This document shows, piece after piece, positions 7,826 through 26,320 of a stretch of DNA of 64,000 nt (position 1 is the first letter of the stretch; each line of letters starts with the position of its first letter). The notes under the pieces are model-generated. The model did no database searches and was not told where the DNA came from. It worked only from the letters and a program-made list of their open reading frames with translations. Location of the stretch: the NCBI RefSeq assembly GCF_002019735.1, contig NZ_KV917378.1:801869-865868 (forward strand), in the 5' to 3' direction. The DNA is from Salipaludibacillus agaradhaerens (GTDB taxonomy: Bacteria > Bacillota > Bacilli > Bacillales > Salisediminibacteriaceae). Made by a program: the position numbers and the translations under genes.

Positions 7826-8409
7826 CCTTTTCTCAAACGTCTATAATAAAAATACCGATCAATAAGAATAGCTCCAATAGTGGAACATGCTGTTGCCATG
7901 ATCGTTGTCATGACAATTTCTGTAGGAGCTGCCGATTGGTAATCGATGCGTAAGGATATGACTGTCGTAGGAATTAACGTAATACTTGCTGTATTGATAG
8001 CAAGTAGAGTGATCATTGAACGGCTAGCTTCATCTTTATTATTATTTAACTCTTTTAATTCTTTCATAGCTTTAATCCCCATCGGAGTTGCGGCATTACC
8101 TAATCCAAATAAATTGGCACTCATATTTGAAATAATGTAGCCGATAGCCGGATGGTCTTTAGGAATGTCAGGAAATAATTTCCTTACAAATGGTTGAAGC
8201 ACTCTACCAACAGCTCTTAACATACCTGCCACTTCGGCAATTCTCATCATGCCAAGCCAGAAGGTAAGAATACTAATAAGACCAATACATATCGTGACAG
8301 CTTCTTTAGCCCCTGCAAATACAGCTTCATTTACTTGTTCCATGTTTCCATTTATGGCAGCAAACATAAAGCCTACAACAAATAAACCAACCCATATTAT
8401 ATTAACCAT
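7810..8409 (-). CDS. spmA: spore maturation protein SpmA
   Basis: SpmA is the partner of SpmB and belongs to the same Gate-domain membrane family. The 199 residues contain multiple membrane segments and the conserved stretch SANLFGLGNAATPMG. It overlaps dacB by 8 bp upstream and spmB downstream, so the three genes are one coupled unit. In B. subtilis this operon is transcribed in the mother cell by sigma E; I did not find a convincing sigma E promoter here. Confidence 0.94.
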   Translation of the reverse strand: MVNIIWVGLFVVGFMFAAINGNMEQVNEAVFAGAKEAVTICIGLISILTFWLGMMRIAEVAGMLRAVGRVLQPFVRKLFPDIPKDHPAIGYIISNMSANLFGLGNAATPMGIKAMKELKELNNNKDEASRSMITLLAINTASITLIPTTVISLRIDYQSAAPTEIVMTTIMATACSTIGAILIDRYFYYRRLRKGCGDN

Positions 8410-9550
8410 TTGTTCCTGCCTCGTTGAACTTCAACCACGGCTCTACCCATCTTTCATAAAAGCTCGGTTTTTTATCGTTTTCATATATATATTTTATTGG
8501 TACGGTGCCGATTATATCGTCATATAACTCGATTTGTACGCTCCCGATTGGATATGGCACCCCTTGTTTTTCCCATTTTTCTAAGTTAGGCCTCAATAAA
8601 AGCAAACGATGAGTTAAATGGTCCTTATCTTCCTTTGACAACGGGTAACCAAACGTATACTGAGCATGAAGCTTATTTTCATAAAACGAATCATTCACAT
8701 TAGCGACGATGCCCTCTGAGACAATCGTATTCATTTCAAAGTTGCCAAAAGCCCATTCAAATAAGTTTATATGATCATTCCAATCGCTAGGCGCATTTAT
8801 GGTAACAGCGATTAATGACATACCCTCTTTTTCCGCAGTCGAGACCAGTGTCCGCTTTGCACGCTTTGTATATCCTGTTTTTCCGCCAGTAGAATGTTTG
8901 TAAAGCTGCGTTAACAATTTGTTTTTATTGTTAAAAACTCGGACCCGCTTTTCTGGCGTTGTTGATCGATAAGTGGTTGTCCCTGATATCTCTCGGTAAA
9001 CCGGATTATCCATAGCATATTGTGTTAATATAGCCATATCATACGCTGTTGAGTAATGTTCTTCATGATCATCTAAGCCATGAGGATTTGAAAAAACTGA
9101 CTGCTCCATACCAATTTCACGTGCCTTTTCATTCATTAAATAAACAAACCCATCCACACTTCCCCCAACATGTTCCGCAATAGCTACCGCTGCATCATTA
9201 CCAGATCGCAACATCAATCCATAAACAAGATCCCTTAGTATAATTTTTTCCCCTTCAGCCAAATAAATCGACGAACCTTCAGTTCCATAGGCATGTGATG
9301 AGATCGTCACTTCTTCATCAAGCTTTCCTGATTCGATCGCTAGTATCGCCGTCATAATTTTCGTTATGCTAGCAATTCTCATCGGTGTTCTTGCTTGTTT
9401 CTCATACAACACTCTACCACTCTCTTGCTCTATTAACACAGCTCCTTTTGCCGACGTATGACCTGCAAATTGCTGCTGTGCCTCTACAGAAACCTGAGCA
9501 GGCAATACGAGAAAAATAAAACAGAGAACACATAATAGTAATACTCTCAT
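8402..9550 (-). CDS. dacB: D-alanyl-D-alanine carboxypeptidase DacB (spore cortex)
   Basis: DacB (PBP5*) trims stem peptides in the spore cortex and so sets its cross-linking. An N-terminal signal peptide (about 1-25) is followed by a peptidase S11 domain. The SxxK box is ASITKIM, the SGN box RSGNDAA and the KTG box GGKTGYT. The ATG at 9550 was chosen because AGGAGG lies 7 bases upstream and the 382-residue product matches the family; the frame extends to 9583 without a better signal. Spacing to spmA is an overlap of 8 bp. Gene order and the S11 family fit DacB rather than DacF. Confidence 0.93.
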   Translation of the reverse strand: MRVLLLCVLCFIFLVLPAQVSVEAQQQFAGHTSAKGAVLIEQESGRVLYEKQARTPMRIASITKIMTAILAIESGKLDEEVTISSHAYGTEGSSIYLAEGEKIILRDLVYGLMLRSGNDAAVAIAEHVGGSVDGFVYLMNEKAREIGMEQSVFSNPHGLDDHEEHYSTAYDMAILTQYAMDNPVYREISGTTTYRSTTPEKRVRVFNNKNKLLTQLYKHSTGGKTGYTKRAKRTLVSTAEKEGMSLIAVTINAPSDWNDHINLFEWAFGNFEMNTIVSEGIVANVNDSFYENKLHAQYTFGYPLSKEDKDHLTHRLLLLRPNLEKWEKQGVPYPIGSVQIELYDDIIGTVPIKYIYENDKKPSFYERWVEPWLKFNEAGTNG

Positions 9551-9742
9551 ACCCTTCCTCCTAATCCGGTACTTCCAGTTCAATCATGCACCTCTTCATT
9601 AATAAAAGAACCTCTAAATGATGTTTATGCATGTGACGGACAAGTATGTCCACGTTTATTACAAGAATAAAATGAACATGACTGAGGTAAAACTACATCT
9701 ATTGATTTATTACTATTTAATGAAAACTTGGAGGGATAATGA

Positions 9743-10462
9743 GTGAACCAATTTTTTGAATTCTTTGTTGTGATTGCACGTATCTTTACAATTCTCCCTC
9801 TCTTATTAGTCGTGACTATGTATATGGGGAAGCGCGCTATCGGGCAACTCCCATTATTTGATTTCCTCGTTATTATTACACTTTCCTCTGTCACAGGTGC
9901 GGATATAGCCGACCCAGATATTCAACATATACATACAGTTATAGCTATTATTACTATCGCTTTATTACAGCGCATTATTAGCTATCTCATCATTAAAAAA
10001 CGTTGGTTCGGCCATGTTATGACCTTTGAACCAACAGTGGTGATCGAAAATGGTGTGCTCCTTATTAAAAACATTGAACATATTCGCTATTCAATTGATA
10101 ATATATTACAGATGTTAAGAGAAAAAGATATTTTTGACCTTTCTATCGTGAAATTGGCAATCATTGAGGCAAATGGAAAACTGACTGTTTATCGATTTCA
10201 CAGCAGTACGCCTGTGTCACTTGAAGACATTAATGTGACGAAACGCACGTCTAATTTAGCGTACCCTGTAATGATGGAAGGAAAGGTGTATACTGAAGTA
10301 TTACAAAACCTCGGCTTATCTGTCTCTTGGCTTCATAATGAACTCATGAAGAAGGGCATTAATCATCCAGAGAAGGTCCTATTTGCAAGTATAAATGATG
10401 ATCATCAGTTACATATTTCAACGATCGATGCAACCCCCACAGGCCCTCCCTTTAGACATTAG
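9743..10462 (+). CDS. YetF-type DUF421 membrane protein (copy 1)
   Basis: This 239-residue protein has hydrophobic helices in its first 90 residues and then a soluble DUF421 domain recognisable from VVIENG, LLREKDIFDLS-like and AIIEANGKL segments. The start is a GTG with GGAGGG eight bases upstream; a nearby ATG at 9739 is out of frame. Its stop abuts the spoVAE stop on the other strand. DUF421/YetF genes are known to accompany some spoVA operons (the spoVA-2mob type), where they influence spore heat resistance. A role in the spore membrane is inferred from context only. Confidence 0.85.
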   Translation: MNQFFEFFVVIARIFTILPLLLVVTMYMGKRAIGQLPLFDFLVIITLSSVTGADIADPDIQHIHTVIAIITIALLQRIISYLIIKKRWFGHVMTFEPTVVIENGVLLIKNIEHIRYSIDNILQMLREKDIFDLSIVKLAIIEANGKLTVYRFHSSTPVSLEDINVTKRTSNLAYPVMMEGKVYTEVLQNLGLSVSWLHNELMKKGINHPEKVLFASINDDHQLHISTIDATPTGPPFRH

Positions 10463-10813
10463 TTATCCTTTAGGTTTAAAAAGGAGGGCCGCAATAAAGC
10501 TGAAAATGATCGCCGATGAAATACCAGCACTTGTCACCTCGAAAATGCCTGTGAGGATACCGATCAATCCAGTACTTTTAGCTTCCGTGATCGCACCATG
10601 AACAAGTGAATTACCGAAGCTCGTAATAGGAACAGTGGCCCCAGCGCCAGCAAAATCGATTAAGGGTTCATATAACCCTATCCCATCGAGAATAGCCCCA
10701 CTCACAACAAGCGTGCTAAGTGTATGAGCTGGTGTCAATTTACCTACATCTAGCATAAGCTGGCCAATGACACAAATTAAGCCTCCAACAATAAATGCAT
10801 TCACAAAAATCAT
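10463..10813 (-). CDS. spoVAE: stage V sporulation protein AE (SpoVAEb type)
   Basis: SpoVAE is a small inner-membrane subunit of the spore dipicolinate channel. The 116-residue protein has several hydrophobic segments and the conserved [10 protein letters not shown] motif. It resembles the C-terminal half of SpoVAC, its paralogue. Its ATG overlaps the spoVAD stop as ATGA, so translation is coupled. There is no spoVAEa-like partner next to it. Confidence 0.9.
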
Positions 10814-11829
10814 TGAACAAAACCTCCTTGTCTTTCAATTGAAACAGCGTGGGCGATACAAGGAATGGACTCTTGCTGTTGAAAAGTTAGTGGAGAAAGG
10901 AGAGCCCCTGTGGCAACAATCAGTACTTTGTTCAGTTCACCTTGCTTTAATCGATTATATATGTGACCATAAGTGACTGCTGCCGAGCATCCTGCACCAC
11001 TAGCCCCTGATTGAACAGGTTGTTCTTCGTTATAAATCATCAACCCTGCGTCTTGAAAACTATTTTGATCAATTTGCATATTCTCATTCTGAAATAGTTC
11101 CAGTGCCACAGCATGACCAATTTTACCTAAATCCCCAGTGAGAATGAGATCATAATAATCTTCTGGCAAACTCCGATCTTCAAAATGTGCTTTTATTGTA
11201 TCAACAGCAGCTGGTGCCATGGCGCCTCCCATATTATAAGGATCCTTTAATCCTTCATCTATGACTTTACCTATGGTGGCAGACGTTACAATAGGTCCTG
11301 TTCCCGAAGATGACACGACTCCTACCCCTGCAGCTGTTACGGTCCATTGTGAGGTGGGAGGTTTTTGAGAGCCATATTCTGTAGGGTACCTAAATGTTTT
11401 TTCTACAGCCGCATTATGACTCGCCGACCCTGTTATAACATTATTAGCTCCTTTTCCATTAACGATAAAAGCCGCAAGAGCTAATGCTTCCATCGATGTA
11501 GAACAGGCGCCAAATAACCCAAAATATGGGATGGAAAGACTTCGACAAGCAAAACTTGTAGAAGTAATTTGATTTAACAGATCACCTGCAAAAATAAATT
11601 GAATATCTTCTTTCTGTAAATTTCCTTGATTCAAGGCTTCATGACATGCCTCTTCTAAAAATTTCTTCTGAGCTTTTTCATAACTATCTTCTCCGAACCA
11701 CAAGTCATCCGAAAAGCTGTGAAAGTCCGCAGTCAATTTCCCCTTTTTTTCAAAAGGTCCGCCAACAACCCCTGTACTTGTTATGACCGGCCTGTTTTCA
11801 AATAGCCATGAGCGATTTCCGATTAACAT
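10810..11829 (-). CDS. spoVAD: stage V sporulation protein AD
   Basis: SpoVAD is the thiolase-fold, dipicolinate-binding subunit of the SpoVA channel. The 339-residue protein has the family segments [26 protein letters not shown] and ASHNAAVEK. It lies 12 bp after spoVAC and overlaps spoVAE. No membrane segment is visible, as expected for this peripheral protein. Confidence 0.94.
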
Positions 11830-11841
11830 AGTGCCACCTCC

Positions 11842-12306
11842 TTAAAGTTGAAAGAAAATCATTTTAATAAGCACAATCACAAAAGCTGCGAACACGCCAA
11901 ATACAATCACAGAGCCAGCTAGTTTAAACATATTTGATCCGACTCCAAGAACATAGCCTTCTGTTCGGTGTTCAATCGCGGCGGAGGCCATGGCGTTTGC
12001 AAATCCCGTTACAGGGACAGCAGAGCCTGCTCCTGCAAAGTGTCCAAATCTGTCATAAACACCAAAACCAGTGAGGAGACTGGCGATCAACACAAGTGTT
12101 GCCACAGTTGGATCTCCAGCTGTTTTTTCAGTAAAGTCAAAATAGTAAATGTACCCGTTTTGAATAAGCTGGCCAAATGTGCAAACAAGACCGCCGATAA
12201 TAAATGCTTTTAAACAGTTTTTTCCGACAGGTCGTTTTGTTTCATGTTTATCGGCTATTTTTTGGTAAGCTTGCTGTGCCGGTGTTAGATTTGATTTTTT
12301 ACTCAT
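11842..12306 (-). CDS. spoVAC: stage V sporulation protein AC
   Basis: SpoVAC is the channel-like, mechanosensitive membrane subunit of the SpoVA dipicolinate transporter. The 154-residue product has a charged N-terminus (LTPAQQAYQ...) followed by hydrophobic segments and the conserved VPVTGFANAM stretch. The ATG at 12306 gives the usual SpoVAC start with AGGATAGGTG upstream; the frame extends to 12390 but that adds a basic tail that runs into the preceding gene. Confidence 0.93.
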   Translation of the reverse strand: MSKKSNLTPAQQAYQKIADKHETKRPVGKNCLKAFIIGGLVCTFGQLIQNGYIYYFDFTEKTAGDPTVATLVLIASLLTGFGVYDRFGHFAGAGSAVPVTGFANAMASAAIEHRTEGYVLGVGSNMFKLAGSVIVFGVFAAFVIVLIKMIFFQL

Positions 12307-12319
12307 GCTGACATAACAC

Positions 12320-12745
12320 CTATCCTTCCATGTCCTTCTTAATTTTTTTCGTATCCTTTTCCACGTTTTTTTTCGTAATTTGTTGAGCATCCAGCTTCTG
12401 TTTTAATTCTTTAATTTCCATTTCAATTTTTTTATCTGTAGAAACGTGGACTTTTCCTTCAGGTAAAGATGTTTTTAGCTTCTTTTCTGCCTGACTTCGA
12501 ATATCTTTTAAGAAAAAACGGTCAAAACCTGTGACATTTAAATACACATATACGTCATCATTAAAAGACACGGCTTCAGCCTGCTCCACACGCTGCAACA
12601 CTTCAACTGTTTCTTCAGCTTTTTCAGCTAAATCCTGAGAAACAGTTTCGTTAGTCGTTGCAAATTTTTCAACAGAACCTTCTTCTGCTGTTTGACAAGC
12701 GGTTAAAGTCTGCAACACCAACAGAAAAATCAGGATTTTTTTCAT
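12320..12745 (-). CDS. YhcN/YlaJ-type sporulation lipoprotein
   Basis: The N-terminus is a lipoprotein signal peptide ending in the lipobox LTAC (Cys at about residue 16). The mature part is charged and contains the segment DDVYVYLNVTGF typical of YhcN/YlaJ sporulation lipoproteins. The C-terminus is lysine-rich. It is first in the unit yhcN-like-spoVAC-spoVAD-spoVAE, 13 bp before spoVAC. In the literature such lipoprotein genes accompany spoVAC-D-Eb in mobile spoVA operons. It is expected in the inner membrane of the spore. Confidence 0.85.
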   Translation of the reverse strand: MKKILIFLLVLQTLTACQTAEEGSVEKFATTNETVSQDLAEKAEETVEVLQRVEQAEAVSFNDDVYVYLNVTGFDRFFLKDIRSQAEKKLKTSLPEGKVHVSTDKKIEMEIKELKQKLDAQQITKKNVEKDTKKIKKDMEG

Positions 12746-12775
12746 GTGTAAGCCACCTTTCTTATATCATACCGT

Positions 12776-12804
12776 TAGTATCGTTCTTCCTAGCTGTTTT
12801 ATGT
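12776..12804 (-). promoter_or_regulatory. candidate sigma G (or sigma F) promoter of the spoVA unit
   Basis: Read on the minus strand, ACATA (12804-12800) and GATACTA (12782-12776) are separated by 17 bases. They resemble the -35 and -10 of forespore sigma factors (GHATR and CATNNTA), with one mismatch each. The -10 lies about 30 bp upstream of the lipoprotein start. Confidence 0.4.
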
Positions 12805-12956
12805 TGGAAAAAAAAGTATTTATAAAGAATGATGGGTAGAAGACACTTGAATTAATCGTTATTAGTCATCTGTAAAAAGCGTTATTATCTCTGTGATAAA
12901 TATGAGATAATATAACTTTAACCTTTATCATTTTAACGAATAGGAGAGAAAATAAA

Positions 12957-13475
12957 ATGTGGTTATGGGTGATCAGTAGTTTACTTCTCGTCATTTTTTT
13001 GACTCAGTTATTTATTGTGTACCTTCTTTTAAAAAGAGACAAAAGAATGAAGGCCGAAAAATTAGTAGAACAACACAACAAGCTAAATGAGTCACTAGTT
13101 GAATCAGAAGAGGACAAAGATGAAATGAGACGAACTGTGGAGCTTCAGCTACTTAGAATAAGAAATGCTGTTCAAAAACAAGCAGAAGGAATTCACCAAA
13201 AGGAAATGGAACTCGCTCCAAAAGAAACGATTATTCCTGAGGGAAAACTTGAAGTTATTTATTCTGAAGAGAAATTTAACACTATCATGACTTTTATGGA
13301 CATCTTTAATAATTACTTAAATCGTTTTTGGTACACAAAAAATGGTCAGCTAAAAACTGTATTCCCAGGTACACCTGACAATAAAGAAAGTGAAGCAGGT
13401 CGACTTATTCAGCGTTCCCATGAACTTTGTCATGAAATGGACATCTTACTTAGTAGTCTATTCAACCGCTCATAA
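12957..13475 (+). CDS. unknown membrane-anchored coiled-coil protein
   Basis: I do not recognise this 172-residue protein. It has one N-terminal membrane helix (about 3-24), then a highly charged, probably helical region (about 25-90) and a more globular C-terminus with the aromatic stretch NNYLNRFWYTKNGQ. The ATG has TAGGAGAG upstream. It is divergent from the spoVA unit and is followed at 56 bp by a DUF421 gene on the same strand, so these two may be co-transcribed. Confidence 0.7.
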   Translation: MWLWVISSLLLVIFLTQLFIVYLLLKRDKRMKAEKLVEQHNKLNESLVESEEDKDEMRRTVELQLLRIRNAVQKQAEGIHQKEMELAPKETIIPEGKLEVIYSEEKFNTIMTFMDIFNNYLNRFWYTKNGQLKTVFPGTPDNKESEAGRLIQRSHELCHEMDILLSSLFNRS

Positions 13476-13531
13476 TTTTTTCACTACCGGCTCATTCTAT
13501 ACTTATCTTGTAAAAAAGGTAGGTATCTTGA

Positions 13532-14242
13532 TTGAATACAAATTTTTATTCGTTAACCATCGAGCTACTAGTCGGCTTTATTGCATTACTTGTATTAACG
13601 AAAGTGTTAGGAAAAACGCAAATTACACAATTAACACCGTTCGATTTTATCTCTGCATTAATCTTAGGTGAACTTGTGGGAAACGCTATTTATGATAAAC
13701 AAATTGGTATTAATTATGTTTTATATGCTGTTATGCTGTGGGGGCTTTTAATTACGCTTGTTGAAAAGATTACACAAAAATGGAAGCGATCACGAAGCTT
13801 ATTGGAAGGAAAACCCGCTATTATTATTCGTAACGGAATGATCGATCGGGAAGAATTGAAAAATAATAATCTCGACCTTCATCAGTTACAAAATTTATTA
13901 AGAAATAAAGACATTTTCTCATTTAACGATGTAGCATTCGCTATTCTTGAATCTAACGGGACGGTAAATGTGTTAAAAAAAAGTCTTCAACAAACCCCTA
14001 CGAGAGACGACTTTTCTTTAACGCCTAGTAGTGTTACTCTCCCCATGACACTCATTAGTGACGGCGAATGGATAGAGGATAATGTCTATCAAGCAGGAAT
14101 GACCATAGAAGAACTCAATAAAAAGTTAACTAATGAAGGTCTTCATGTCTCACATATTCTAGTCGCTGAATGGGATAAAGGAAAACCCCTCTATTTACAA
14201 TTAAACCGTGCTCCTTTTATAAAAAATATTACTATAAATTAA
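13532..14242 (+). CDS. YetF-type DUF421 membrane protein (copy 2)
   Basis: This is a second DUF421 protein of 236 residues with membrane helices in the first 90 residues and a soluble C-terminal domain (PAIIIRNGMID, LLRNKDIFSFNDVAFAIL). The start is a TTG preceded by AAAAGGTAGG. It differs clearly in sequence from the copy at 9.7 kb, so this is not a recent duplication. Together the two copies bracket the spoVA unit. Confidence 0.85.
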   Translation: MNTNFYSLTIELLVGFIALLVLTKVLGKTQITQLTPFDFISALILGELVGNAIYDKQIGINYVLYAVMLWGLLITLVEKITQKWKRSRSLLEGKPAIIIRNGMIDREELKNNNLDLHQLQNLLRNKDIFSFNDVAFAILESNGTVNVLKKSLQQTPTRDDFSLTPSSVTLPMTLISDGEWIEDNVYQAGMTIEELNKKLTNEGLHVSHILVAEWDKGKPLYLQLNRAPFIKNITIN

Positions 14243-14284: not shown

Positions 14285-14779
14285 CTATTTTCCCTCTCTC
14301 TGTTTTATTTTTGTCCTATAGTCCGTTTCATAGTATTCTAATTCTTCACGAACTTCTTGTAGTGGGCCTTCAATTTCGCAAGTAAGATCTTTAATTTCTT
14401 GTGGAACATCAGTCCGAAAGCGGATAGCGTTTCTGCCAGTATATGCGGCCCTACTATCTTCATACCATACGTCATAATGCGGTTGAAAAAATTCCTCCAC
14501 ACATTGATGAAAAATCCAATACAATGTTTTCTCTGCGGCGCCTTTCCTAAAGTTTTCGCTGCGAAGTAAGACATTTCCTGATTTTAAACCTTCATCAAAA
14601 AATACGAGTAATCGCCTAAATTGATCTAAAATTAATTGAAAATCTTCTTTAGAGGTAGACTGATTCTCCATTAATTTTGAGAGAGTTGCCTCATTTAAAT
14701 ATTCCCTTAATTTTTTCGATGCTTTCTCAATATGCGCTGTCGTTAATTCCAATTGTTGCTTTACTAAGTCATTCCCCAT
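14285..14779 (-). CDS. ypuI: YpuI family protein (DUF3907)
   Basis: The 164-residue soluble protein has no known function. Identity rests on its position after scpA-scpB, where B. subtilis has ypuI, and on its size. It has a charged helical N-terminus and an aromatic-rich middle (YWIFHQCVEEFFQPHYDVW). The ATG at 14779 is preceded by AAGGAGAG at good spacing; the upstream ATG at 14803 overlaps that ribosome-binding site and is unlikely. It overlaps scpB by 11 bp. Confidence 0.78.
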   Translation of the reverse strand: MGNDLVKQQLELTTAHIEKASKKLREYLNEATLSKLMENQSTSKEDFQLILDQFRRLLVFFDEGLKSGNVLLRSENFRKGAAEKTLYWIFHQCVEEFFQPHYDVWYEDSRAAYTGRNAIRFRTDVPQEIKDLTCEIEGPLQEVREELEYYETDYRTKIKQREGK

Positions 14780-15404
14780 CGTCAGTAATCTCTCCTTCTT
14801 CATTTAACACTAGCTGTGGATCAGCGGAAAATTGTTCTTGAAACTTTGTGAAAAATAAATCCACTTCTTCTTCTACATCTTCTTCAGACACATTGTCAGG
14901 TAACGGTGGGAGTTCATCTATAGAACGTAATCCAAATTGTTCAAGAAACAACTTGGAAGTCCCATATAAAATCGCTCTTCCAGGCCCTTCTGCTCTGCCA
15001 ACTTCTTTAATAATCCCTTTTCCGTTTAACGTACGAATTGGACGCTCAGATTTCACCCCTCGAATATCCTCAATCTCGACACGTGAAATCGGCTGTTTAT
15101 AGGCAATAATTGCAAGGGACTCCAGAGCTGCTTGAGATAGCGTTGCTGAAGATGGTGACTGTACTAGTCGTTTAAAAAACGGCGCATGATCTTGCTTCGT
15201 TGTTAATTGATAGCCGCCAGCTACTTCCACAAGTTGAATGCCTCGTTGCTCTGACTGGTACATGTCTTTCATTTCTGCTAAATAAAATTTAAGTGATTTC
15301 CGATCTATTTGTAAGACATCCATTAGTTGTTTTTCATCGATACCTTCTTCCCCGGACACAAACAAAAGTCCTTCTATCACAGCTTTTATTTCATGACTTT
15401 TCAA
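14769..15404 (-). CDS. scpB: segregation and condensation protein ScpB
   Basis: ScpB binds the ScpA kleisin and the SMC heads in the condensin complex for chromosome compaction and segregation. The 211-residue protein has two winged-helix domains, with the conserved LAIIAYKQPISRVEIEDIRG segment around residue 105. The C-terminus is acidic. It starts with TTG immediately next to the scpA stop, with GGGAGG upstream inside scpA. Confidence 0.95.
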   Translation of the reverse strand: MKSHEIKAVIEGLLFVSGEEGIDEKQLMDVLQIDRKSLKFYLAEMKDMYQSEQRGIQLVEVAGGYQLTTKQDHAPFFKRLVQSPSSATLSQAALESLAIIAYKQPISRVEIEDIRGVKSERPIRTLNGKGIIKEVGRAEGPGRAILYGTSKLFLEQFGLRSIDELPPLPDNVSEEDVEEEVDLFFTKFQEQFSADPQLVLNEEGEITDDGE

Positions 15405-21829: not shown

Positions 21830-23176
21830 TTATTTATTTACAGTTGAATCCACATCTTTAAGTTGACACTGATGACGGTATGATCGCTCGTGGCGCACTA
21901 AGTCACTAAACGTCTCTCTCTCAATAACACATGTGTGTTCTCCACCTTCCACAAAAACCACAGCAGGACGAAGAATACGGTTATAATTATTGGCCATAGC
22001 ATAACCATATGCACCTGTAGAAGAAACTGCAAGAATATCACCTTGAACAGCTGGTGGTAACTTAACATCCCAGATAAGCATATCGCCACTTTCACAGCAT
22101 TTGCCTGCGATAGATACGAGTTCTGTTTTTTCATCGTTTGCTTTATTCGCTAAAACAGCTTCATATTCTGCCTGATATAATGCTGGACGAATATTATCAG
22201 TCATCCCCCCGTCTACAGATAGGTATGTCCGTACATCGGGAATATCTTTTCTAGCACCTATACGGTAAAGTGTCGTACCAGCTTCCCCGACTAGTGCCCG
22301 CCCTGGCTCAATCCAAATTTCTGGAACTGGCATTTTCAGTTTAGCTGCCTCGCTTTTCGCCGTTTCTACCATTTTGTCAACATAGACATGTAAAGGCAAT
22401 GGATGGTCGTTCTCTCCATATCGAATACCAAAGCCGCCCCCCACATTTAACACATCTGGATAGTAGCCCATTTCCTGATGCCACCGGGCTATTGATAAGT
22501 AAATTGCTTTCACCGCTTCTTCAAAGCCTTCCGCTCGAAAAATTTGTGATCCTATGTGTGAATGGACACCTTGTAAGTAAAGATACTCATGATTAAGTAA
22601 CATTTTAATCGCCTTTTCAGCTTGACCACTGTTCAGATCAAATCCAAATTTGGAATCTTCCTGTCCAGTTGAAATATATTCATGTGTGTGTGCTTCTACA
22701 CCCGGTGTAATTCGAATAAGAACTTTCATCGGCGTTTTCATAGATTCAGTCATAGCCATTAGCCAAGATAGCTCTGTAAAGTTGTCAACAACAATACACC
22801 CAATTCCTTCTTTTAAAGCCATTTCCAACTCATCAGGCGTTTTATTATTACCATGAAAATGAATTCTCTCGGCTGGAAAACCTGCCTTCATAGCGGTAAA
22901 CAGTTCCCCACCAGAACAGACATCTAAACTTAAACCCAGTTCTTCAGCTAGCTCTATCATAGCAATACAGCTAAATGCTTTACTTGCATAAGCTACTTGA
23001 TAATCTACACGTTGTTGTTCAAAAGCTTTCTTAAAAGCTAACGCGCGATCGCGAATGTCTTTCACATCATATATATATAACGGAGTGCCATAATACTCTG
23101 CTAATTCAGTAACATCGACGCCACCTATCGTTAAATGTCCAAAGTCATTAATATAGCTCGTGCCGTATAAACCCAC
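21830..23176 (-). CDS. lysA: diaminopimelate decarboxylase
   Basis: LysA makes L-lysine from meso-diaminopimelate, the last step of the pathway. The PLP lysine is Lys66 (AYASKAFSC). Other signatures are DVCSGGELFTA, NVGGGFGIRY, EPGRALVGEAG and CCESGD. The length of 448 residues is typical. The start is GTG at 23176, with AAAGGAG nine bases upstream; an ATG two bases away is out of frame. Expression is controlled by the upstream lysine riboswitch. Confidence 0.97.
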   Translation of the reverse strand: MGLYGTSYINDFGHLTIGGVDVTELAEYYGTPLYIYDVKDIRDRALAFKKAFEQQRVDYQVAYASKAFSCIAMIELAEELGLSLDVCSGGELFTAMKAGFPAERIHFHGNNKTPDELEMALKEGIGCIVVDNFTELSWLMAMTESMKTPMKVLIRITPGVEAHTHEYISTGQEDSKFGFDLNSGQAEKAIKMLLNHEYLYLQGVHSHIGSQIFRAEGFEEAVKAIYLSIARWHQEMGYYPDVLNVGGGFGIRYGENDHPLPLHVYVDKMVETAKSEAAKLKMPVPEIWIEPGRALVGEAGTTLYRIGARKDIPDVRTYLSVDGGMTDNIRPALYQAEYEAVLANKANDEKTELVSIAGKCCESGDMLIWDVKLPPAVQGDILAVSSTGAYGYAMANNYNRILRPAVVFVEGGEHTCVIERETFSDLVRHERSYRHQCQLKDVDSTVNK

Positions 23177-23541: not shown

Positions 23542-25029
23542 TTAGCTTTGTTTAATCGGGTCTTTTGGTTTAACGATACTTGGTCTACGTCGTTTTAATG
23601 GAATTGGTTGACGGATTAAAATATCCCAAAAGGCTTTCGGATAAAAGGGCAGAAAGGGCCACAAATACGGTGCATTTAAAGGCTTCGTTCGAGCTATAAG
23701 GATGAAAAAGACTGTTGTAGCAATAACAAAGCCTGGTACTTTAAACAATGCAACAGCTATGAGGACGGCTATCCTTAAAATTTTTAATGCAATCGCCATT
23801 TCATAACTTGGTGTTGCGAACATACCAATGGCAGCAAAGGCTACATATAAAATAACTTCTGGGACTAACAAACCCACCTCAATGGCAATTTCACCAATTA
23901 GTAAAGCCGCTACTAACCCGAGAGCTGTCGCTAAAGGTGAAGGTGTATGTATTGCAGCCATCCTTAATAATTCAATTCCTAATTCAGCAAAGACCATTTG
24001 AGCAAATATAGGTACATTTGTTGTTTCTTCAGGCCCAATGTAGTGCAATTGTTCAGGAATGAGTGATGGTTCTAGCACCATCAATAGCCATAATGGCAAA
24101 ATGAATAACGCAAATATCATACCTGAAAAGCGTACCCATCGAAAAAAAGTGCCAACTATAGGGGCTTGGCGATATTCTTCCGCATGCTGCACATGATGAA
24201 AAAAAGTAGCTGGAAACACGATGATACTTGGGGATGTATCCACAAATAAAATAACATGACCTTCCAACAAATGAGTAGCTGCTACATCAGGCCTTTCTGT
24301 ATAGCGTACCATCGGAAACGGATTAATTCCTTGCTTCACGACGAACTCTTCAACCACTTTGTCTGCCATTGTTAACCCGTCTATATCGATCGCTTCTAAT
24401 TCTTTTCGAACAATGTTCACAAGGTCTGGGTCAGCAACCCCTTTAATATACGATAAACAGATATCTGTCTTTGATCTTCTTCCAACTTGCATCATTTCAT
24501 TGCGTAATCTTTCATCCCGAATTCGACGTCTAGTTAACGCCGTATTTTCAATAATATTTTCCGTATACCCATCGCGGCTTCCCCGTACAACTCGTTCTGT
24601 ATCAGGTTCTTCAGGTCCACGTCCAGGATAACTTCGTACATCTATGACAATGGCTTCTGCTTCACCTTCAATGAGAATAAATATAAGCCCCGAGAGCATT
24701 TGCTTAATAGCTGTATCTAGTGTATCAGCATACTCAACTTGTACGTGGGTCAGTCGATTTTCAATCTGCTCTCTGACTTTATTAGTTCGCTTTCTTTCTG
24801 TAGCGTCTAAAAACATGAGCTCTTTTAACAGCTCAATGATATATTCGATATCGCAAAGACCATTAACAAAATAAAATTGGACTTCCTTATCGAGTACATG
24901 AATCTTTCTAATCCCTACGTCAAAGCTTTCACCAATACCCACTCGTTCTATTATCCGGCGCTCATTTTCGTGGATATCTGTAACAAATGGATGATCAATT
25001 TTTGTTTCATCCAGCTCATCACGACTCAA
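23542..25029 (-). CDS. spoVAF: stage V sporulation protein AF (GerA family)
   Basis: SpoVAF belongs to the GerA/GerBA spore germinant receptor A-subunit family and is an inner spore membrane protein. The 495-residue protein has a soluble N-terminal domain (about 1-300) with VRSYPGRGPEEPDTER and VDTSPS-type motifs, then a membrane domain (about 305-465) with PLWLLMVLEPSLIPEQ. It starts with TTG, with AAGGAGAG upstream. It stands alone between lysA and sigF: the spoVAA to spoVAE genes found before it in B. subtilis are absent here. Confidence 0.92.
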   Translation of the reverse strand: MSRDELDETKIDHPFVTDIHENERRIIERVGIGESFDVGIRKIHVLDKEVQFYFVNGLCDIEYIIELLKELMFLDATERKRTNKVREQIENRLTHVQVEYADTLDTAIKQMLSGLIFILIEGEAEAIVIDVRSYPGRGPEEPDTERVVRGSRDGYTENIIENTALTRRRIRDERLRNEMMQVGRRSKTDICLSYIKGVADPDLVNIVRKELEAIDIDGLTMADKVVEEFVVKQGINPFPMVRYTERPDVAATHLLEGHVILFVDTSPSIIVFPATFFHHVQHAEEYRQAPIVGTFFRWVRFSGMIFALFILPLWLLMVLEPSLIPEQLHYIGPEETTNVPIFAQMVFAELGIELLRMAAIHTPSPLATALGLVAALLIGEIAIEVGLLVPEVILYVAFAAIGMFATPSYEMAIALKILRIAVLIAVALFKVPGFVIATTVFFILIARTKPLNAPYLWPFLPFYPKAFWDILIRQPIPLKRRRPSIVKPKDPIKQS

Positions 25030-25094: not shown

Positions 25095-25126
25095 CAAAAA
25101 CAGCTCAACTTAATCGTTGAGCTGTT
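25095..25126 (-). terminator. intrinsic terminator overlapping the end of sigF
   Basis: AACAGCTCAAC (25099-25109) and GTTGAGCTGTT (25116-25126) are perfect 11-bp arms, followed by TTTTTGTATT on the minus strand. The sigF stop codon is in the loop. It separates the spoIIA operon from spoVAF. Confidence 0.85.
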
Positions 25127-25865
25127 CTTTCAATTGAATGAGAATTTTCTTTTCAAGTCGTGAAACCTGTACTTGAGAGATTCCAAGTCTTTCTGCTACC
25201 TGAGATTGTGTTTGATCTTTATAATACCTTAGAAAAATAATTAACTTTTCACGGTCTGATAGTCTGTCAATTTCATCTTTTAACGCTATTTTATCGAACC
25301 ACTTCGTATCATTTTCATCAGAAATTTGGTCGAGGATAGTAATAGGGTCACCATCATTTTCATAGACTGTTTCATGAATAGAGGCTAGTTGCCGATTGGC
25401 TTCTTGAGCAAATACAACTTCTTCAGGGCTGATGTCTAACTTATCGGCTATTTCTTGGATAGTTGGTACTCTACCAAACGTTTTTGCTAGCTCATCACTC
25501 ATTTTGCGAATATGATTCGCTGTTTCTTTAATTGATCGGCTTACTTTTACTGTGCCGTCATCTCGAAGAAAGCGTTGAATTTCTCCAATAATCATAGGGA
25601 CGGCATAAGTAGAAAATTTGACATCAAAAGATAAATCAAACTTATCTACTGATTTAATTAAGCCAATACACCCAATTTGAAATAAATCCTCTTGGTCATA
25701 ACCCCTATTTAAAAAACGTTGTACGACTGACCAAACTAGTCGCGTATTGTGACTGACGATACGGTCACGAGCCTTTTGATTACCTTGTTGCGCTTCTGCG
25801 ATCAATTTTTTTACTTCCTCATCTTTTAAATACTTCTTCTGATTATCTTTAAATTCTACATTCAT
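25110..25865 (-). CDS. sigF: RNA polymerase sigma factor SigF (forespore)
   Basis: Sigma F is the first forespore-specific sigma factor and is held inactive by SpoIIAB. The 251-residue protein has region 2 (GCIGLIKSVDKFD, FSTYAVPMIIGEIQRFLRDDG), region 3 and region 4 (REKLIIFLRYYKDQTQSQVAERLGISQ, split here by reading). The ATG at 25865 gives the MNVEF start seen in homologues; an adjacent ATG at 25868 also fits the AGAGGA site. It follows spoIIAB by 14 bp. Confidence 0.96.
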   Translation of the reverse strand: MNVEFKDNQKKYLKDEEVKKLIAEAQQGNQKARDRIVSHNTRLVWSVVQRFLNRGYDQEDLFQIGCIGLIKSVDKFDLSFDVKFSTYAVPMIIGEIQRFLRDDGTVKVSRSIKETANHIRKMSDELAKTFGRVPTIQEIADKLDISPEEVVFAQEANRQLASIHETVYENDGDPITILDQISDENDTKWFDKIALKDEIDRLSDREKLIIFLRYYKDQTQSQVAERLGISQVQVSRLEKKILIQLKEQLND

Positions 25866-25879
25866 CATAGGGAGTCCTC

Positions 25880-26320
25880 TCAATTACAGAGTACATTTTG
25901 TTTTGACAGGCGTTTAACGAGTGTGACAGTCGTGCCCTCTAATCGGCTCGATTCAACTGAAACGTCATCCATAAAGTTCTCCATAATTGTAAATCCCATA
26001 CCACTTCGTTCCAGTTCTGGCTTCGATGTATATAATGGCTGCCTTGCCTCTTCCAAATTTGAAATACCTAAACCCTCATCACGGACTACAAGATGGACTG
26101 TTCCGTCTACTAACTCAACCTCGACATAAACAATCCCTTCATCGTTTTCCCCGTAACCATGAATAATCGCATTCGTAACGGCTTCACTCACAACCGTTTT
26201 TATTTCAGTGAGTTCATCCATTGTTGGATCTAATTGGGCTACAAAAGCAGCTACTGAAACTCTTGCAAATGATTCATTAGCACTGACAGCTGTAAAGGAT
26301 AACGCCATTCGGTTTCTCAT
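25880..26320 (-). CDS. spoIIAB: anti-sigma F factor SpoIIAB
   Basis: SpoIIAB is a GHKL-fold kinase that binds sigma F and phosphorylates SpoIIAA on serine. The 146-residue protein has the N box [11 protein letters not shown] and the ATP-binding VRDEGLGI and [12 protein letters not shown] motifs. It overlaps spoIIAA by 4 bp. Confidence 0.97.

What the first reader, a model, noticed from the sequence alone, without database searches (positions are those of the whole stretch)
9743..14242. spoVA genes moved to a new site and flanked by two DUF421 genes
Seen: between dacB and ypuI, neighbours I recall as adjacent in B. subtilis, there is an extra block with DUF421 - spoVAE/D/C - yhcN-like lipoprotein - unknown TM protein - DUF421. 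At the classical site between lysA and sigF only spoVAF remains. Known: mobile spoVA-2mob operons carry yhcN-like, spoVAC, spoVAD, spoVAEb and DUF421 genes and raise spore heat resistance. Inference: the block is either an ancient relocation of spoVA or a fixed spoVA-2mob-like cassette that replaced the original. spoVAA, spoVAB and spoVAEa are not in the window.
Basis: partly seen in the sequence, partly recalled or inferred. Interest (0 to 1): 0.7.

Follow-up and report, generated by a model that had tools for sequence, protein, structure and literature searches.

The report
Sole spore DPA channel is SpoVA2
The block encodes a second, separate version of the channel that loads spores with dipicolinic acid; in this bacterium it is the only version left, and some close relatives seem to run channels built from native and foreign parts.

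Summary
The gene block is real, but it is not relocated spoVA. It is a resident spoVA2 locus (B. anthracis type): lipoprotein NJ2, C2, D2, Eb2, flanked by two DUF421 genes and an unnamed one-helix protein. Classical spoVA1 and spoVA2 separate at 100/100 support for D, and the window falls in spoVA2. Relatives such as Evansella halocellulosilytica carry both loci at different sites. The block lies between dacB and scpA/scpB/ypuI in 30 of 38 fetched loci, from at least seven named genera. Here it holds the genome's only C, D and Eb; SpoVAA and SpoVAB are absent. Relatives show graded loss at sigF-lysA, down to spoVAF alone.

The unexpected result is in sister species. Three genomes of the genus keep NJ2-C-Eb in the block but not D; their only D lies elsewhere and is foreign (AU p 1.6e-56; Eb follows the genus, C does not conflict). 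The window's genome has an empty site there. These species should use hybrid DPA channels. Function is inferred; nothing was tested at the bench.

The parts
8402..9583 (-). dacB, flank of the site
   Evidence: Pfam Peptidase_S11 5.4e-73; next to the block in relatives
9743..10462 (+). DUF421a, YetF-family membrane protein (YetF_N model not matched)
   Evidence: PF04239 6.5e-34; YetF 3c6f 54.3 bits; at this site in 3 of the 4 other genus genomes with an intact block (L186, L188, L189; not L003)
10463..10813 (-). spoVAEb of spoVA2 type
   Evidence: TIGR02839 171.6 bits; Eb tree
10810..11829 (-). spoVAD of spoVA2 type (predicted plug)
   Evidence: NF009069 572.9 bits vs NF006160 449.5; D tree
11842..12306 (-). 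spoVAC of spoVA2 type (open frame runs to 12390)
   Evidence: TIGR02838 204.1 bits from residue 40 of the long frame; C tree
12320..12745 (-). NJ2-like (YhcN/YlaJ) lipoprotein, predicted cap
   Evidence: PF09580 25.2 bits, just under cut-off 26.3; Cys17 invariant in 36 aligned sequences; model pLDDT 86.5, best PDB match YhcN 7peg
12797..12825 (-). sigma-G-like box upstream of the NJ2-C-D-Eb operon (one mismatch)
12957..13475 (+). 172-aa protein, N-terminal helix plus helical domain, no known family
   Evidence: no Pfam match at E 0.01, NCBIfam matches far below their cut-offs only; 21-sequence alignment with 7 invariant residues; model pLDDT 90.1, best PDB fold match E 1.8
13470..13499 (+). 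sigma-G-like box upstream of DUF421b
13532..14242 (+). DUF421b, YetF-like membrane protein
   Evidence: PF04239 and PF20730; YetF 3c6f E 6.8e-32
14285..14803 (-). ypuI, flank of the site
21830..23176 (-). lysA, flank of the classical spoVA site
   Evidence: Orn_Arg_deC domains; name by recall
23542..25029 (-). spoVAF, the remaining gene of the classical spoVA operon
   Evidence: PF03323 GerA family; order sigF-spoVAF-lysA
25110..25883 (-). sigF, flank of the classical spoVA site
   Evidence: ORF; name by recall and order

Best explanation
The block is a resident, mainly vertically kept spoVA2 locus. Its C2 and Eb2 proteins form the inner-membrane channel, D2 is the plug on the core side and NJ2 the cap on the outside; together they load dipicolinic acid (DPA) into the forespore and release it at germination. 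It is the only such channel in this genome. Its ancestors most likely held a complete spoVA1 operon as well, which decayed at sigF-lysA until only spoVAF was left; FigP (YqhR), the partner of SpoVAF, is still encoded. The two flanking DUF421 proteins most likely stiffen the spore inner membrane, as YetF does in B. subtilis. Shown here: lineage, site, single-copy status, absence of SpoVAA and SpoVAB, graded loss in relatives. Inferred from published work on B. anthracis and B. subtilis: DPA transport, plug and cap roles, and the DUF421 role.
For: D tree: spoVA1 and spoVA2 split 100/100, window in spoVA2; Eb and C trees agree (100/99 each); subfamily model NF009069 beats NF006160 by 123 bits, the reverse of the B. 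subtilis-type protein L114. Only C, D and Eb in the genome. No SpoVAA or SpoVAB, while the same searches find each in 20 of 28 genomes and in B. subtilis. Block at the dacB site in 30 of 38 fetched loci. Both loci together in E. halocellulosilytica (L068, L124), Alkalicoccobacillus (L007 with L123, L024 with L121), A. pseudalcaliphilus (L071 with L136) and other genomes. Graded loss at sigF-lysA. NJ2 model resembles YhcN. DPA synthase gene dpaA present; YqhR present, named FigP in PMC11841064 (passages). SpoVA2 function: PMC13059800 (abstract and four sections).
Against: Two DUF1657 genes and 2Duf, normal for spoVA2, are missing from the block; one 2Duf gene lies 1.6 Mb away. NJ2 scores under the family cut-offs by sequence. 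Rows from the dacB block do not form one clade in any of the three trees (4 changes for D, 8 for Eb, 6 for C), so a single insertion is not shown and exchange of single genes is likely. The window's lowest G+C kilobase (0.336) lies in the block. No expression or phenotype data.
Confidence: 0.9

Rival explanations
1. The classical spoVA1 C-D-Eb genes were moved from sigF-lysA to dacB-ypuI (relocation).
For: The genome holds one set only, and spoVAF was left at the old site.
Against: The proteins lie in the spoVA2 clade; relatives hold spoVA1 at sigF-lysA and the block at dacB at the same time.
Confidence: 0.02
2. A recent mobile spoVA2mob insertion in this strain.
For: Same core genes as the Tn1546-borne operon of PMC5133452 (passages). 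The kilobase at 13001-14000 is the poorest in G+C of the window (0.336). A 23-nt inverted repeat (21 of 23) lies at 9505 and 14297, on either side of the block, above 40 shuffles of those two flanks (at most 17, flanks chosen after seeing the repeat).
Against: Block at this site in 7 of 7 other genomes of the genus, whole in 4 and without D in 3, and in other genera; no transposase ORF between dacB and ypuI; DUF1657 and 2Duf missing. The inverted repeat lies in dacB and ypuI coding sequence and fades in relatives (18, 16, 14, 15, 16 and 15 of 23 in L186, L188, L189, L003, L244, L245).
Confidence: 0.03
3. The block is an accessory channel and DPA enters the spore by an unrelated route.
For: The function was not tested in this organism.
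Against: dpaA is present, no other SpoVAC/Eb or SpoVAD exists in the genome, and Galperin et al. 2012 list these three among genes of all spore-forming bacilli and clostridia in their set (PMC3533761, passages).
Confidence: 0.05
4. For the hybrid channels of sister species: the split is an assembly or search artefact, or the D gene was merely moved within the genome.
For: The three genomes are drafts (30-90 contigs); C and Eb alignments are short; the clades for the AU tests were chosen after the trees had been seen.
Against: Three of three genomes (99-100% complete) show the same split with the flanking genes in place; D of G029 is 82% identical to A. deserti but 65% to the window, while its C is 84% identical to the window; AU p 1.6e-56 against D following the genus.
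Confidence: 0.07

Closest known systems
SpoVA2 locus of Bacillus anthracis / B. cereus (PMC13059800)
   Same: C2, D2, Eb2 lineage and an upstream YhcN/YlaJ lipoprotein (NJ2) in the same order
   Different: No DUF1657 genes or 2Duf in the operon; it is the only spoVA core locus; flanked by two DUF421 genes and a 172-aa protein; sits at dacB-ypuI
spoVA2mob operon on Tn1546 (PMC5133452)
   Same: YhcN-like, spoVAC, spoVAD, spoVAEb core
   Different: No transposon seen, site shared across genera, lacks three of the seven genes, and does not come on top of a spoVA1 operon in this genome
Classical spoVA (spoVA1) of the B. subtilis type
   Same: C, D and Eb are homologous (58, 49 and 68% identical to the B. 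glycinifermentans spoVA1 set)
   Different: Different clade, different site, no SpoVAA, SpoVAB or SpoVAEa beside it, has NJ2
YetF/YdfS/2Duf (DUF421) spore inner-membrane proteins (PMC10126465, PMC12548441)
   Same: DUF421 domain; DUF421b also has the YetF N-terminal transmembrane domain
   Different: Placed as flanks of a spoVA2 operon, without the DUF1657 domain of 2Duf

Membership tests
SpoVA2 DPA channel locus | C, D and Eb proteins of the spoVA2 lineage | tested here: met
   D, Eb and C trees; NF009069 is the best model for D. No B. anthracis or B. cereus sequence was in the trees; the lineage is anchored by loci with the published gene order (L013, L005 and others)
SpoVA2 DPA channel locus | YhcN/YlaJ-type lipoprotein (NJ2) gene just upstream of C | tested here: met
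   Position, invariant Cys17, fold nearest to YhcN 7peg; sequence scores alone are below the curated cut-offs
SpoVA2 DPA channel locus | Two DUF1657 genes and 2Duf in the operon | tested here: not met
   Only one DUF1657 domain in the genome, the tail of a distant 2Duf; all three genes are in the block in 5 of 30 loci (L070, L071, L199, L205, L212)
SpoVA2 DPA channel locus | Forespore (sigma-G) promoter | tested here: inconclusive
   Boxes with 10 or 11 of 11 matches upstream of NJ2 in 12 of 31 loci (3.1 expected); one mismatch in the window itself
SpoVA2 DPA channel locus | Carries DPA into the spore | not testable with these tools
   Needs spores
spoVA2mob (Tn1546-borne) | Lies on a Tn1546 transposon | tested here: not met
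   No transposase ORF between dacB and ypuI; same site in 30 of 38 fetched loci
Classical spoVA1 operon | C, D, Eb in the spoVA1 clade between sigF and lysA with spoVAA and spoVAB | tested here: not met
DUF421 / YetF family | PF04239 domain over its cut-off | tested here: met
   116.6 and 114.8 bits against 23.6
DUF421 / YetF family | Sits in the spore inner membrane and raises resistance | not testable with these tools
   Published for B. subtilis homologues (PMC10126465; PMC12548441 abstract)

The most novel reading that the evidence does not exclude
Natural hybrid DPA channels. Two related spoVA2 operons met in the same ancestors and lost genes in a complementary way, so that the channel is now assembled from parts of two lineages: resident NJ2-C-Eb with a foreign D plug in part of the window's genus, and resident NJ2-Eb with C-D from a second operon in neighbouring genera. 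The cap and Eb stay together in the resident block; D is the part that can be exchanged. The window keeps the all-resident version.
Probability: 0.65. Interest if true: 0.75.

Novelty: new variant of a known kind. Interest (0 to 1): 0.62.

Why it matters
How DPA is moved into and out of spores is a central open question of spore dormancy. SpoVA2 with its cap was described in 2026 in a species that also has SpoVA1 (PMC13059800). Here is a lineage that has SpoVA2 alone, a set of relatives that show stages of the loss of SpoVA1, and sister species whose only possible channel mixes native and foreign subunits. Comparing these sisters makes it directly testable which subunit contacts have to match, and whether SpoVAA and SpoVAB (kept without their own C-D-Eb in several genera) work with a foreign core.

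Tried and rejected
Relocation of spoVA1: rejected.

Link between the Eb position 65 variant (published as bypassing NJ2, PMC13059800 section read) and loss of NJ2: tested and not found. Of 180 aligned rows (one a second copy of the window's Eb, some loci overlapping) 173 have Ser, 3 Gly and 4 Asn. The 4 Asn rows come from 3 genomes (L058 and L105 are one); 2 of these 3 have NJ2 in the locus. The one dacB block without a detectable NJ2 (L193) has Ser.

A first impression that some genomes lack Eb, or both C and Eb: corrected by a genome-wide search, which found the missing genes at the dacB site in the window's family and elsewhere in other families.

Idea that the foreign D operon had left 2Duf behind in the window's genome: not supported. 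The distant 2Duf is only 34-38% identical to those of G028, G029 and G032 and lies in another neighbourhood.

Compensating changes in SpoVAC of the hybrids: 4 columns separate hybrid from non-hybrid genus members, 3 of them in the first 30 residues, but the donor clade does not share one residue there. Left as a lead.

Faster evolution of SpoVA1 beside the block: D1 identity to a B. subtilis-type D1 has median 47% (11 loci) against 64% (19 loci), p 1.3e-4; sigF does not differ (6 against 19 loci, p 0.66). But spoVAF is also lower (57 against 63%, p 0.003), three loci whose spoVA2 lies elsewhere (L210, L223, L228) have similarly worn C1 and Eb1, and the genomes are related, so this is descriptive.

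A fold for the 172-aa protein: no PDB match worth naming.

The inverted repeat around the block as transposon ends: not conserved in relatives.
Full report
What is there. On the minus strand a compact operon runs NJ2-like lipoprotein, spoVAC, spoVAD, spoVAEb. DUF421a faces it from the dacB side; a 172-aa protein and DUF421b lie on the ypuI side, on the plus strand. At the classical site the order is sigF, spoVAF, lysA, with 80 bp between sigF and spoVAF. The names ypuI, sigF, scpA and scpB rest on recall and order. The window lies in a 4.32-Mb genome in one contig, 99.97% complete. Its genus-mate G030 has the same size, coordinates and score as G001, in which the record named Salipaludibacillus neizhouensis lies, so the window is probably a Salipaludibacillus (inference).

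One channel only. The genome has one SpoVAD, two members of the SpoVAC/Eb family, no SpoVAA and no SpoVAB; in the same calls SpoVAA and SpoVAB were each found in 20 of 28 genomes. SpoVAA was found in none of the 8 genomes of the genus (the window's, G001, G028, G029, G031-G034). SpoVAEa was not searched genome-wide. dpaA and YqhR, named FigP and the partner of SpoVAF (PMC11841064, passages), are present. Seven DUF421 genes exist; one, far away, is a 2Duf with the only DUF1657 domain of the genome.

Which lineage. Trees were built with 87 D, 86 C and 84 Eb sequences, chosen by me to cover each arrangement, where 150, 148 and 135 had been collected. spoVA1 and spoVA2 separate with 100/100 for D, 100/99 for Eb and 100/99 for C; the window is in spoVA2 each time. 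The spoVA1 side is anchored by L114 of Bacillus glycinifermentans, whose D matches two solved SpoVAD chains at 635 and 720 bits (B. subtilis and B. licheniformis by recall). The NCBI subfamily models agree. No B. anthracis sequence was used; the spoVA2 side is anchored by loci with the published gene order. The lipoprotein scores under the family cut-offs, but its model (pLDDT 86.5) has YhcN of B. subtilis (7peg) as best match (E 1.3e-3, TM 0.72 by target length). This is the core gene set of the B. anthracis SpoVA2 complex, in which NJ2 is predicted to cap and D2 to plug a C2/Eb2 channel (PMC13059800: abstract, introduction, discussion and two result sections).

Site and age. Of 38 fetched loci in which both dacB and scpA, scpB or ypuI were visible, 30 (the window included) have spoVA2 genes between them and 8 do not. 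Named genera with the block and both flanks are Salipaludibacillus, Evansella, Alteribacillus, Salibacterium, Geomicrobium, Halalkalibacterium and Alkalihalobacillus; Alkalicoccobacillus shows it with the dacB side only (L007, L024). All 7 other genomes of the genus have it at this site, 4 whole and 3 without D. The fullest form (L070, L205, L212) is DUF421b, 172-aa gene, DUF1657, NJ2, C, D, Eb, DUF1657, 2Duf, DUF421a; the window has lost the DUF1657 genes and 2Duf, or never had them. Rows from the block are not one clade in the trees, so later exchange, or more than one insertion, is possible.

Decay of spoVA1. Between sigF and lysA (L121 and L137 seen only; L191, L194, L197 and L199 are cut on the sigF side) one finds the full AA-AB-C-D-Eb-Ea-AF (L124, E. 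halocellulosilytica, which also has the block), AA-AB-Ea-AF (L120, Halalkalibacterium), AA-AB-AF (L125 Alteribacillus, L127 and L128 Salibacterium), Ea-AF (L134 E. clarkii, L135 Geomicrobium, L189 of the window's genus), C-D-Eb-Ea-AF (L136 and L137, Alkalihalobacillus) and AF alone (window, L133, L186, L188). The reading that spoVA1 wore down beside a working spoVA2 is an inference from these states. That spoVAA and spoVAB can be missing was known (PMC3533761, passages). In Alkalihalobacillus deserti the D gene of a second spoVA2 operon has an in-frame stop.

Hybrid channels in sister species. G028, G029 and G032 belong to the window's genus; in the tree of six flanking proteins the eight genus members form one clade (98/94). 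In these three the block reads NJ2-C-Eb, without D (L244-L246). Their only D lies elsewhere, with DUF1657 and 2Duf, beside a nitroreductase-like gene (name recalled). In G028 and G029 a second conserved gene follows on the other side; in the window's genome these two neighbours lie side by side, 173 bp apart, without the insert. G032 shares only the nitroreductase side. Holding the eight D proteins of the genus together costs 145.8 log-likelihood units (AU p 1.6e-56); Eb forms the genus clade at 100/95; C does not reject it (p 0.365), its free tree holding the genus plus the long-branched L193 at 100/96. The groups are genus codes, but I chose to test them after seeing the trees. D of G029 is 82% identical to A. 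deserti and 65% to the window; its C is 84% identical to the window. As each of the three genomes has one D and two C/Eb genes, the channel has to combine resident and foreign parts, if it works.

Six further genomes of the family (G035, G037, G043, G050, G055, G059) keep NJ2-Eb at the dacB site and have their only C-D at another site, in 5 of 6 with DUF1657 and 2Duf, in G037 without; three of them have a further weak SpoVAD match under the cut-off (19.6-20.3 bits), which I did not count. Here too D departs from the genus (AU p 1.6e-8 for the pair L068/L190; p 6.5e-4 for the other genus) and Eb does not (pair a clade at 100/92; other set p 0.58). For C the evidence is weak (p 0.17 and 0.043). 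In the 30 blocks Eb is present in 30, NJ2 in 29, C in 24 and D in 21, but the nine split loci were fetched because they were split, so these are not frequencies.

Function. [quoted passage not shown] anthracis (PMC13059800). DUF421 proteins such as YetF and YdfS raise spore resistance in B. subtilis and affect inner-membrane properties (PMC10126465: abstract and two sections; PMC12548441: abstract). DUF421b is close to YetF, DUF421a more distant. Sigma-G-like boxes are more frequent than in shuffles upstream of NJ2 (12 of 31 loci, 3.1 expected) and DUF421b (8 of 26, 3.2 expected), not upstream of DUF421a (2 of 19, 2.1) or the 172-aa gene (2 of 21, 3.3). Among other genes dacB had 6 of 30 (2.3 expected), C2 0 of 25 (1.4), ypuI 1 of 22 (1.9), scpA 4 of 27 (4.1), rluB 0 of 21 (2.7), lysA 1 of 9 (0.8), scpB 1 of 29 (2.8). 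The loci are related and some start codons are the longest-frame choice, so this is suggestive only. The 172-aa protein is conserved in 21 aligned sequences and has no family over cut-off and no fold match.

Print status. The rows listed by the searches (0 to 20 rows each, titles and starts of abstracts) show no paper on a spoVA2-only lineage at dacB or on hybrid SpoVA channels. The library holds open-licence papers only, and the texts of most listed papers were not read.

Noticed in passing
L113, L119, L120, L122, L125, L126, L127, L128, L130, L131: spoVAA and spoVAB are kept at sigF-lysA although C, D and Eb of the same operon are gone; they may serve the spoVA2 core.
   Followed up: partly
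L253-L257 (G004, G008, G072, G080, G013) with L006, L017, L221, L231, L025: Domibacillus, Peribacillus and others also split the channel: NJ2-Eb or NJ2-C-Eb at one site, C-D or D with DUF1657 at another.
   Followed up: partly
window 12957-13475: A 172-aa membrane-anchored family without Pfam or PDB relative, found beside the block in 20 aligned relatives.
   Followed up: partly
window 9505-9527 and 14297-14319: A 23-nt inverted repeat (21 of 23) in dacB and ypuI, on either side of the block; above shuffles of the two flanks but not kept in most relatives.
   Followed up: partly
G026:C11:671670-672656 (L073): SpoVAD of a second spoVA2 operon in Alkalihalobacillus deserti has one in-frame stop, perhaps a redundant copy in decay.
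   Followed up: no
G038, G039, G044, G045, G047, G048, G051, G054, G056, G058, G060: Eleven genomes of the same family, all of genera g5 and g6, have no SpoVAD; the 5 of them also searched for SpoVAC/Eb have none, which suggests lost sporulation. Two (G058, G060) are only 80% complete.
   Followed up: no
L124:9992-11260: An ORF between spoVAF and lysA in Evansella halocellulosilytica looks like a group II intron reverse transcriptase (recalled, not searched).
   Followed up: no
L068:4494-5378 and homologues beside the block: A conserved gene next to the block carries a superoxide-dismutase-like motif (recalled, not searched).
   Followed up: no
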